From Branchiostoma floridae (Eukaryota; Chordata; Leptocardii; Amphioxiformes; Branchiostomatidae), in contig NC_049993.1 of assembly GCF_000003815.2 (NCBI RefSeq), forward strand, positions 5,671,686 through 5,735,685: a stretch of 64,000 nt of DNA, in the 5' to 3' direction. The notes below the pieces were generated by a model. That model was not told the DNA's origin. It was given only the letters and a program-made list of their open reading frames with translations, and did no database searches. Position 1 is the stretch's first letter; each line of letters starts with the position of its first letter. Both the position numbers and the translations under genes were made by a program. Below, one piece after another: positions 9,832-12,800 of the stretch.

Positions 9832-9845
9832 TTTATTTCTTTATT
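9832..9845 (-). terminator. Polyadenylation hexamers at the end of receptor B
   Basis: Two AATAAA hexamers on the minus strand overlap and directly follow the stop codon (9845-9840 and 9837-9832), implying a very short 3' UTR if used. Confidence 0.55.
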
Positions 9846-12800
9846 TTGGTTCTTTCATCTCCTTGTCCAGCGAAGACGACCGTGACCCCTGCAGGGACTG
9901 GTAGTCGCTGTCGGGTCGGGCCGCCTGTAGGGACTGGTAGGCGCTGTCAGGGCGGGCCGCCTGTAGGGACTGGTAGTCGCTGTCGGGTCGGGCCGCCTGT
10001 AGGGACTGGTAGTCGCTGTCGGGTCGGGCCGCCTGTAGGGACTGGTAGGCGCTGTCAGGGCGGGCCGCCTGTAGGGACTGGTAGTCGCTGTCGGGTCGGG
10101 CCGCCTGTAGGGACTGGTAGTCGCTGTCGGGTCGGGCCGCCTGTAGGGACTGGTAGTCGCTGTCGGGTCGGGCCGCCTTGAGCTGGGCCGGGTTGTCTAT
10201 GCCGCTATCCTGCATCTCTAACCTATAGGCAGGAGAGATACTCATTCAAGCGGACACACAGATATATGTTGGCTTAAAACAAAGCTGAGCTAGAGCAACT
10301 TGTGACAATGATACGCATGTTAAATGTTAAATAATAAGCCAGTTCATTGGTTGAACTGTGCATGTGCGAGGTCAAAGATCATGACCCCAACTTGTAAACC
10401 TTTCTTGTCAAGACCATCCTGATACATGTGCAGAAGTGTTTTGTTTATGACTCGGGCCCATTAAACTTTGACATATTACCCACAATGCCATTAAACTTTG
10501 ACATATTACCCACACGCGCGTAGAAAGAAATAGACCGTTCCAATAATGGCAATATATATATAGCCACGCCAATCTCAGTCAAAACTTAGAAATGCAAAAC
10601 GAAAAGGCACAAATGCACCAATTCGACAGACCTACATTCACACTCTCTATTGAACAACTTGAACTACTTATTTTGATTGACAGTCGGTATCGGTCTGTTA
10701 TCATGAAGCTAAAAGAAGAAGATTTACCTCTCTAATTTCTCTAGCTCCTGCTCTCGAGATTTGACTCCGTACCTGCAAGAAGTATAATCATGTGACATCA
10801 TTCATATATCTATGCAAATCAGTTGAAATACTGCACTAAGCCATCACTCCTATGGTAGCACATTTCAAAAGCATGGCTTTGTGTAATCTCCAAGCGGATC
10901 TTGCTTTGGCTAATAACTCCTCTACCGGCTAAACTCCTTCCCATTTGCCACAGCAAGATCTGCTTGGAGATAAGGCTTCGTGCACAATACTAGTACCAAC
11001 AAAAAAAGACAATCATGTCATCCAATGGTGCCATTAGAAAGTTCGAAACCACAAGAACTGATGTTTGCATTATCATACTCTACAATCCAGTCTATCTGCA
11101 TACGAACCTTCCCTTCTTCCTCCTCATGCAGAAACACACGGCAACGATAATCGCCAGTAGGAGAAGCAGAGCCAGGGCGGCCCCTATCACTGCGTACAGG
11201 ATGATCTCGTCTTCTGTCAGTCCACCGTCGCCATTTTGTTGCCCGTTGCTCCCCGGTTTTCCTGTAGTAACCGGTTTGATGTCCGGATGTCTCGTCGATT
11301 CCGTCACCGATTCTGTGGTTCCGGGCTGTTTCGTTGTTGTGATCGCTGCTGTGCTGGTTGTAGCTGGTGGGACGGTTGCGATTGCTGCCAAATAAGAAAA
11401 GAGTCCGCAACTGGTCATCAAACGGTTCACTAACGCAATATTTATGGTTGTAAGTTTTGGTGATGCATTTTGTAAGCATTATGATGGATTATCATATAGC
11501 CAGGTGCCGCGGACCAATCAGAAGGCCCAGTTACACGTTGGTTATGACGCAGTAACACATAGATTCAAGTCAGGCAGGTGGGTATCGCTCCCCTGATTGG
11601 TCAGAATGAATCGACACCGGCACCGGTGNNNNNNNNNNNNNNNNNNNNNNNNNNNNNNNNNNNNNNNNNNNNNNNNNNNNNNNNNNNNNNNNNNNNNNNN
11701 NNNNNNNNNNNNNNNNNNNNNNNNNNNNCGGTGCCGGTGTCGATTCATTTTGACCAATCAAAAGTAGCCATACACACAAGAAAGTAAGGTATATGCAGGC
11801 ATTGGCCAATAAAAAGGAGCGAAACATATGCCAGAGCAGAGGGAATACGTACGTACAGACTGCAGGGGGAATGGCTTCTTCTTACATTGATAATGAGTTT
11901 TGTTGTTCTTAAAAGCCTGCAATGTTTCGAATATTTCTGTGGAAATTTTGGTTTCAAAATGCAATCTGTAATCTCCTTACATATGCATGTACCAAAGAAC
12001 AAATGTGAATTTTCAGAAATTCAACAAAGGAATGCACACGTATCTATGCGTCATACAGGAGTTTGCAAGTTTGGGTGGGCTATATGATAATAACGTTAAT
12101 GACCCGCCTGTTCCTCGGTGTACATGGTGTCATAACGCCTGGTCCTTTGCTATAACCACCTCATAAAACCACCTCGTTCGCTTCGCTCACATCGGTGGTT
12201 TTATTCGGTGGTTATAGCAAAGGACCAGGCGTTATGACACCATATACACCTCGGGGCGAGTCATTAACCCTTAATTAACGCATTCTGAAATATTTGTATA
12301 CCTGTGTTTGGATACTGTATTTGATACAGGGCCCTGCAAGATTTAATTGCTGCAACATATCAAGACCTGTTGTTAATGGTTAACTCAGGTTATGATATCT
12401 ACCTACCTATTTCACAGAGTGTTCCTCCATATCCAGTTGGGCAGATACAATAGTATCCGGCAAAGAATTGTCTTTCTGTACAGGTGCCGCCATTTTGACA
12501 TGGATTGCTGGCACATTCGCCTATAATTACACAATGCAAAACATAATAAACATCAAGAGCAAATCAAAATAGTACATTTGAGAACGTTTTCGTGTCTATT
12601 TGTCACAGAAAGGACTAATAATTACTTTCGTGTTAAGATTTTTGTCGCAGGATTTTTAGCGAGACAAAGACAGAGAGGAATGCAGATATGGGTTAAATTT
12701 CCCGCCACACGACAGCTGAATATCGTAGCCACATCCACGAATATTCCAAGATAGACCTCATTTCACTGTCTCTGGGGCGAGAAGAGATCGTGACCATGAA

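What the first reader, a model, noticed from the sequence alone, without database searches (positions are those of the whole stretch)
9841..10222. Receptor tail built from eight tandem ITAM-like units encoded by a 36-bp minisatellite
Seen: eight in-frame 12-residue units each give DxxYQSL, with successive tyrosines in YxxL-x8-YxxL spacing. Known: ITAMs follow (D/E)xxYxxL/I-x(6-8)-YxxL/I and recruit tandem-SH2 kinases (Syk/ZAP-70 family); YxxPhi motifs bind AP-2. Inference: a CUB/EGF/mucin receptor that can dock several kinases or adaptors in cis, with copy number set by minisatellite slippage. Expansion would tune signal strength between alleles, which would be an unusual way to evolve a signalling receptor.
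Basis: partly seen in the sequence, partly recalled or inferred. Interest (0 to 1): 0.88.

Follow-up and report, generated by a model that had tools for sequence, protein, structure and literature searches.

The report
Receptor with eight repeated phosphotyrosine-type motifs
An animal cell-surface receptor gene, probably from a lancelet, seems to have had a single signalling-type motif in its inner tail multiplied into eight near-identical copies, which could change how strongly the receptor signals, although it is untested here whether the motifs signal or whether the copy number varies between individuals.

Summary
On the minus strand, 9889-10176 encodes eight in-frame 12-residue units, AARPDS[D/A]YQSLQ, all DxxYQSL, neighbours spaced YxxL-x8-YxxL. 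They lie in the last exon (10222-9841) of a hand-built 14-exon model that reads through as 865 residues: signal-peptide-like start, CUB, seven EGF, mucin-like stretches, one membrane span, tail. Three of four base changes among units are synonymous in this frame, against none and one in the other two. A tandem paralogue (8469-5027) carries the motif once, beside an NPxY motif. No further copy of the tail was found in the 513-Mb genome. So one unit probably grew to eight; units 2-4 and 5-7 are identical 108-bp blocks. The genome holds possible readers: a Syk gene, a Shark-type kinase and an SHP-2-like gene. The ITAM reading is possible but not unique: every unit also fits the ITIM and YxxPhi consensus. 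Phosphorylation, binding, splicing and copy-number variation are untested. Most likely a multivalent tandem-SH2 docking tail, Draper-like in logic: a new variant of a known kind.

The parts
9889..10176 (-). array of eight 36-bp units, each AARPDS[D/A]YQSLQ; order a a a b a a b a' (b = CGC CCT ... GCC, units 4 and 7; a' = CTG, unit 8)
   Evidence: frame test
9841..10222 (-). gene B exon 14 (last): [15 protein letters not shown] + eight units + [15 protein letters not shown] + stop; acceptor CTATAG|GTTAGAG
   Evidence: in frame with the preceding exon (phase 2, AG|G)
10728..10772 (-). gene B exon 13: juxtamembrane cytoplasmic exon ([14 protein letters not shown]..)
11108..11384 (-). gene B exon 12: mucin-like stalk and membrane span ([24 protein letters not shown], by eye), then basic MRRKKG; weak donor GGGAAG|GTTCGT
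   Evidence: no transmembrane predictor was run
12407..12520 (-). gene B exon 11: EGF 7
12911..13453 (-). gene B exon 10: Thr/Ser-rich mucin-like stretch
   Evidence: no Pfam match
14212..16094 (-). gene B exons 4-9: EGF 1-6 (16094-15981, 15588-15469, 15273-15151, 14979-14866, 14693-14577, 14325-14212), phase 1
16545..16628 (-). gene B exon 3: short Thr/Pro-rich linker
16888..17268 (-). gene B exon 2: CUB domain
17535..17604 (-). gene B exon 1: start codon and signal-peptide-like stretch (by eye)
5027..5162 (-). paralogue A tail exon, one unit only ([11 protein letters not shown]) with shared DNPAQL and GSR.SS flanks; true 3' end unresolved, the frame stays open into the assembly gap at 4791-4890
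5606..5644 (-). paralogue A exon with an NPxY motif (NNPVY); no counterpart in the gene B model
6316..6360 (-). paralogue A juxtamembrane cytoplasmic exon
6600..7548 (-). paralogue A mucin-like stalk and membrane span (by eye)
7827..8207 (-). paralogue A CUB domain, 67-70% identical to that of gene B
8394..8469 (-). paralogue A start codon and signal-peptide-like stretch (by eye)

Best explanation
Gene B encodes a single-pass CUB-EGF-mucin-like surface receptor whose inner tail is a flexible array of eight YQSL docking sites. After ligand clustering a Src-family kinase would phosphorylate the tyrosines, and tandem-SH2 proteins would bind pairs of them. The 12-residue period lets any neighbouring pair serve as an ITAM for Syk or the Shark-type kinase, so up to four could dock at once; pairs two units apart (24 residues) would suit SHP-2. 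The array arose from one ancestral YQSLQ site, still single in the neighbouring paralogue, by tandem duplication of 36-bp units and of at least one 108-bp block, so valency would be set by unit number. Shown: an open gene model, the frame, the array, the single-unit paralogue, presence of the possible readers. Inferred: transcript structure, phosphorylation, SH2 binding, valency effect, and activation rather than inhibition.
For: A 14-exon model reads through 865 residues without a stop, the tail exon in frame (exon limits were chosen by hand to have GT and AG, so GT-AG is no independent test). Three of four base differences among units are synonymous in the coding frame, 0 and 1 of 4 in the others; P = 0.046 for 3 or more of 4 by chance, treating changes as independent. 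Paralogue comparison over 27 codons: pS 0.24-0.34, pN 0.12-0.13; in the core DSxYQSLQ the only amino-acid difference is A/D next to the tyrosine. Readers in the same genome: Syk (N-SH2 best PDB match Syk, E 4.7e-30; part of a second SH2 best match ZAP-70, E 1.4e-6; kinase exon, Syk chains at ranks 2 to 22 of 143 matches, 60 shown); Shark-type SH2-ankyrin-SH2-kinase; SHP-2-like order of SH2 and phosphatase hits. Precedent: Draper and MEGF10 are EGF receptors with ITAM and NPxY read by Shark or Syk, and CED-1 has a single YxxL plus NPxY, as in paralogue A (PMC8092387, PMC4503800, passages).
Against: No binding, phosphorylation or expression data. The units fit ITIM and YxxPhi equally. The array is so young that selection on each unit cannot be shown; it may be largely neutral. 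Conservation rests on two paralogues in one genome, with no second species. The exon-12 donor is weak and the unspliced frame ends just after the membrane span, so a tail-less form is possible. For the Syk-gene kinase exon an EGFR chain ranks first; for the Shark-type kinase exon no Syk chain is among the 60 shown of 620. The catalytic phosphatase motif was not seen in the fetched part of the SHP-2-like gene.
Confidence: 0.5

Rival explanations
1. Inhibitory receptor: the units are ITIMs that recruit SHP-2 (or SHIP) and the array raises avidity for a phosphatase.
For: All 8 units have S at -2 and L at +3. An SHP-2-like order of domains lies in the genome. An amphioxus LRR receptor with ITIM or ITIM-like motifs is phosphorylated by Lck and binds SHIP1 and, to a lesser extent, SHP1/2 in Jurkat cells, and AIYQSD is cited there as an amphioxus ITIM-like motif (PMC8211107, passages).
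Against: Spacing of 12 between neighbours is the ITAM spacing; classical paired ITIMs lie further apart (recalled), though units two apart are 24 residues. -2 is S, not the commoner I, V or L (recalled).
Confidence: 0.2
2. Sorting array: unphosphorylated YQSL acts as a YxxPhi signal for AP-2, and repetition raises endocytic avidity; no kinase signalling is involved.
For: YQSL fits YxxPhi in all 8 units; NPxY in paralogue A is also a known internalisation-type motif (recalled).
Against: YxxPhi alone does not explain the shared D at -3 and the shared flanks DNPAQL and GSR between the paralogues. The first tyrosine is 46 residues from the end of the membrane span, far for a classical YxxPhi signal (recalled).
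Confidence: 0.12
3. Neutral minisatellite: one functional YQSL site was copied by slippage and the extra copies have no effect.
For: Units nearly identical; only four distinct changes, and a 108-bp block (a a b) present twice without a difference, as expected of a young array. Paralogue A has one unit.
Against: All 8 tyrosines and all 8 leucines are intact and the length stays a multiple of three, though the array is too young for this to weigh much. By precedent, duplication of a phosphotyrosine segment can raise tandem-SH2 binding more than a hundredfold (CagA EPIYA-C, PMC4623810 abstract).
Confidence: 0.18

Closest known systems
Draper / MEGF10 / CED-1 engulfment receptors
   Same: Single-pass EGF-repeat receptors with YxxL-type or ITAM and NPxY motifs in the tail; Draper is read by Shark and MEGF10 by Syk, and Corkscrew opposes Draper (PMC8092387, PMC4503800, passages; that Corkscrew is the SHP-2 orthologue is recalled).
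   Different: Gene B has a CUB domain and mucin-like stretches and no EMI domain match; eight YxxL units and no NPxY in its tail; paralogue A has one YxxL plus NPxY but no EGF repeats in its model.
CD3 zeta and the TCR complex (natural ITAM multiplicity)
   Same: Several ITAMs in one complex amplify the signal; the TCR has 10 ITAMs, 6 of them from CD3 zeta (PMC4428620, passages including the abstract).
   Different: CD3 zeta ITAMs differ in sequence, are separate modules, and the chain has almost no ectodomain (recalled); here one 12-residue unit is repeated and the receptor carries its own ectodomain.
CagA EPIYA-C repeats
   Same: A tandemly duplicated phosphotyrosine segment of variable number that recruits a tandem-SH2 protein; two or more copies bind far better than one (PMC4623810, abstract and start of introduction).
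   Different: A bacterial effector, not an animal receptor; its number varies between strains, whereas variation is untested here.
pYtags (engineered receptors with three identical ITAM repeats)
   Same: Identical ITAM repeats at a receptor C-terminus recruit the ZAP-70 tandem SH2 (PMC10202457, passages).
   Different: Man-made; this array would be a natural counterpart with eight units in overlapping pairs.

Membership tests
ITAM | YxxL/I pair separated by 6-8 (up to 12) residues | tested here: met
   7 of 7 adjacent pairs, x8; consensus limits recalled
ITAM | acidic residue upstream of the tyrosine | tested here: met
   D at -3 in 8 of 8 units, D at -1 in 6 of 8
ITAM | lies in the cytoplasmic tail of a membrane receptor | tested here: met
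   in the gene model, tail exon after membrane span and basic stretch; topology judged by eye, transcript unproven
ITAM | phosphorylation by Src-family kinases and binding of Syk-family tandem SH2 | not testable with these tools
   a Syk gene and a Shark-type gene exist in the genome; binding unknown
ITIM | (S/I/V/L/T)xYxx(I/V/L) | tested here: met
   S at -2, L at +3 in 8 of 8; so sequence does not separate ITIM from ITAM
ITIM | recruits SHP-1/2 or SHIP | not testable with these tools
   SHP-2-like arrangement on C14
YxxPhi sorting signal | Y, two residues, bulky hydrophobic | tested here: met
   8 of 8 units; AP-2 binding not testable
Draper/MEGF10/CED-1 family | EMI domain before the EGF repeats | tested here: not met
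   no EMI match at E up to 0.01 in the 865-residue model; CUB instead
Draper/MEGF10/CED-1 family | NPxY plus YxxL in the tail | tested here: inconclusive
   both in paralogue A, only YxxL in gene B
coding minisatellite (VNTR) | tandem units of tens of bases, multiple of three | tested here: met
   period 36, 8 units
coding minisatellite (VNTR) | copy number varies between individuals | not testable with these tools
   one assembly, one copy of the locus found

The most novel reading that the evidence does not exclude
A natural receptor whose signalling valency is set by a coding minisatellite: overlapping, register-free ITAM/ITIM units in one tail, with unit number varying between alleles so that individuals differ in signal strength, and with the same array able to recruit Syk/Shark through neighbours and SHP-2 through units two apart.
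Probability: 0.22. Interest if true: 0.82.

Novelty: new variant of a known kind. Interest (0 to 1): 0.6.

Why it matters
ITAM multiplicity is known to amplify T-cell receptor signals (PMC4428620), but how a multi-ITAM tail arises is hard to see once the motifs have diverged (inference). Here a one-unit and an eight-unit receptor sit side by side in one genome that also holds a Syk gene, a Shark-type kinase and an SHP-2-like gene, so the effect of valency and the step from one YxxL site (as in CED-1) to a repeated tail become directly testable. If copy number varies between alleles, it would be an unusual case of a signalling receptor tuned by a tandem repeat.

Tried and rejected
Looked for further paralogues of the tail: only genes A and B matched, with the A tail at E up to 1 (3 candidates, 3 scored), a shortened B tail at E up to 0.001 (6 candidates, 6 scored, all 4 matches in the array), and by a degenerate DNA pattern (11 matches, 8 in the array, 1 in A, 2 elsewhere that are not this motif, one of these with a stop; reversed control 0). 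The CUB of A finds B at 70% and next best at 43% identity among 16 matches at E up to 1e-6 (150 of 183 candidates scored); the tails of those more distant CUB genes were not read. How common other tandem YxxL arrays are in this genome was not tested, because patterns of over 35 places with sets of letters are not accepted for it.

The kinase search was swamped (134 of 1265 candidates scored) and did not list the Syk or Shark-type kinase; these were found through their SH2 domains. Tandem-SH2 candidates set aside: C6 looks by eye like PLC-gamma (not tested further); in the fetched C15:12.7-Mb and C2:31.2-Mb regions a simple motif scan showed no kinase exon (two lone DFG strings in L063, and one in an intron of L066, were taken as chance). 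The C11 region was fetched, showed an SH2 start and was not followed up. The SHP-2-like call rests on order and strand of SH2 and phosphatase hits, not on a PDB comparison; the catalytic motif HC[ST]AGxGR was not seen in the fetched part, which ends at C14:10577000. Ankyrin repeats in the Shark-type gene were recognised by eye; its glycine-loop exon gave no Pfam match.

Pfam matches of the tail exon to Ice_nucleation and SSTK-IP and of the span exon to TMEM154 and Mid2 (TMEM154 again) are all below the curated cut-offs. The tail (shortened to three units) has no clear relative of known structure: two matches, E 0.032 (fibronectin) and 1.8. No structure was predicted: the tail is expected to be disordered (inference). 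No Rfam family reaches its gathering score in the window.

Literature: no paper in the library holds Syk, Branchiostoma floridae and SH2 together; one holds Syk, ZAP-70, amphioxus and evolution, a Gab/DOS review seen as a listing. The papers listed for ITAM with amphioxus (20 of 22), Branchiostoma with immunoreceptor tyrosine-based (9 of 9) and ITAM with tandem repeat, copy number or minisatellite (15 of 14,142 holding two or more terms) show, by title and start of abstract, none that describes this receptor; of these I read passages of two (PMC8211107, PMC10202457). This says nothing of papers not listed or outside the library. Papers: PMC8211107, PMC8092387, PMC4503800, PMC4428620, PMC10202457 seen as passages; PMC4623810 as abstract, start of introduction and section list; others as search listings only. 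The ITAM, ITIM and YxxPhi consensus limits, paired-ITIM spacing, the Shark layout and the lancelet identification are recalled, from no call.

Full report
What was checked. The window belongs to a 513,431,437-base assembly in 431 contigs (window = G000:C15:5671686-5735685). Base composition around the array is ordinary for the window, and a 100-base assembly gap lies at 11629-11728, inside an intron of the gene model.

The array. On the minus strand, 10176 to 9889, there are eight 36-bp units that translate as [12 protein letters not shown] (six) or [12 protein letters not shown] (units 4 and 7). All eight have D at -3, S at -2, L at +3. The seven neighbouring pairs are YxxL-x8-YxxL. Unit order is a a a b a a b a', where b differs from a by CGA to CGC, CCC to CCT and GAC to GCC, and a' by CTA to CTG. 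Units 2-4 and 5-7 are thus identical 108-bp blocks, which suggests that at least one duplication copied three units at once (inference from the sequence).

Is it coding? I chose 14 exons by hand with GT and AG limits; joined, they give 865 residues without a stop; the extracellular junctions are phase 1 and the two in the tail phase 2. Since the limits were chosen, GT-AG is no independent test; the open joined frame and the domains are. Pfam finds one CUB and seven EGF stretches. Signal peptide and membrane span were judged by eye. A caveat: the donor after the membrane span (GGGAAG|GTTCGT) is weak, and without it the frame ends after RFVCR, so a form without the tail is possible. Several frames through a 36-bp repeat are open easily, so openness of the array alone means little. 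Better evidence is the four base changes among units: three are synonymous in the model frame, none of four in the second and one of four in the third sense frame, where another change makes a stop. With 24% of random changes synonymous, three or more of four has P = 0.046, taking the changes as independent.

The paralogue. Downstream on the same strand (8469-5027) lies gene A: signal-peptide-like start, CUB (67% identical, 70% over 128 residues), mucin-like stalk, membrane span and a tail with [22 protein letters not shown], that is one unit. Its tail also has an exon with NNPVY, an NPxY motif, with no counterpart in the gene B model. Its 3' end is unresolved, because the frame stays open into the gap at 4791-4890. 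Between A and B, 27 aligned codons of the tail give pS 0.24-0.34 and pN 0.12-0.13, depending on which unit is used; in the core DSxYQSLQ only the residue before the tyrosine (A or D) differs. This is mild support for constraint on the motif, from one pair of genes. At the two of three a/b sites where A is informative it has the b state (CGC, GCC), so b units look like the older type (inference). One unit as ancestral state and growth to eight is the simplest history, but there is no outgroup.

How unusual in this genome. The degenerate pattern for D[S..][ADE]YQ[S..]LQ matched 11 places: the eight units, gene A, and two unrelated places (one with an internal stop, one reading DCAYQSFQ); the reversed control gave 0. 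The A tail as protein query gave only A (E 3.2e-22) and two stretches of B (E 0.014 and 0.13) up to E 1. So the tail was found in two genes only. Whether other, unrelated tails carry tandem YxxL arrays was not searched.

Are there readers? The SH2 family search gave 60 matches (81 of 81 candidates scored). One, C15:6243579-6243812, about 0.5 Mb from the window, has Syk as best PDB match (E 4.7e-30) and then ZAP-70. The first part of a second SH2 follows within 1 kb (best match ZAP-70, E 1.4e-6), and a kinase exon lies about 6.4 kb on, for which one EGFR chain ranks first (E 8.9e-17) and the next 21 of 143 matches are Syk chains (E 1e-15 to 3.8e-15), then ZAP-70. I take this as a Syk gene. A second gene, C12:9800385 to 9811180, has an SH2 (best match ZAP-70, E 4.4e-22), ankyrin-like stretches (by eye), a second SH2, and tyrosine kinase exons: the layout of Shark (recalled). 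The kinase exon tested matched EGFR, TYK2 and ACK chains best, with no Syk among the 60 shown of 620. On C14, SH2 hits at 10589848, 10584938 and 10584172 and phosphatase hits at 10579445 and 10577516, all minus, give an SHP-2-like order; the catalytic motif was not seen in the part fetched. A published amphioxus study lists an amphioxus PTPN11a and INPPL1 (PMC8211107, passages).

What it most likely does. The best parallel is the Draper/MEGF10/CED-1 group: EGF receptors with YxxL or ITAM and NPxY motifs, phosphorylated by Src-family kinases and read by Shark (Draper) or Syk (MEGF10), with Corkscrew as the opposing arm for Draper; CED-1 has a single YxxL and an NPxY (PMC8092387, PMC4503800, passages). 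Gene A has a CED-1-like tail; gene B has eight YxxL and no NPxY. Gene B has no EMI domain match, so it is not filed in that family; that it works like it is inference. [quoted passage not shown]

What speaks against the ITAM label. The same residues satisfy the ITIM consensus (S at -2) and YxxPhi. Amphioxus ITIM-type signalling through SHIP1 and, less, SHP1/2 has been shown in Jurkat cells for another receptor (PMC8211107, passages). Neighbouring units have the ITAM spacing of 12; units two apart are 24 residues apart and would suit SHP-2 (spacing preference recalled). The array may thus be permissive for both. A neutral array is also possible: the units are too young to show selection.

Verdict. 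Observation confirmed; interpretation partly supported. It is a new variant of a known kind: a multi-ITAM/ITIM-like tail made by minisatellite expansion of one unit in a Draper-like receptor. The most novel part, allelic tuning of signal strength, is open and testable.

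Noticed in passing
window 1453-2103 and 965-1261, minus: A collagen triple-helix exon (Pfam Collagen E 1.2e-17) followed by an exon that looks by eye like the start of a C-type lectin domain (no Pfam match): possibly a collectin-like gene beside the receptor pair.
   Followed up: partly
window 37711-38919 (+) and 47595-48695 (-), with a more distant relative at 28089-28970 (-): Two long open frames in opposite orientation that look nearly identical by eye (RPAGYAGSRAEWVLKRANDFDTKARSFRC..), and a third diverged copy; the first has only sub-cut-off Pfam matches. 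Possibly a young gene family or a mobile element.
   Followed up: no
window 58052-58636 (-) and 59963-60508: A rhodopsin-class GPCR exon (7tm_1, E 1.4e-10) and what looks like a second copy about 1.5 kb away (the open frame listed there is on the strand opposite to the presumed gene).
   Followed up: no
L066 (C12:9799000-9808900) about 3393-5371: A tandem array with a period of about 92 bp, judged from the spacing of listed frames, with a run of N inside it, within the Shark-type kinase gene and ending next to an ankyrin-like exon.
   Followed up: no
window 10458-10514: Perfect 30-bp tandem duplication (1.9 copies) in the intron just upstream of the array exon.
   Followed up: no
window 5606-5644, minus: NNPVY exon in paralogue A only: the two neighbours differ in NPxY against more YxxL, which could mean division of labour between uptake and signalling.
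   Followed up: partly
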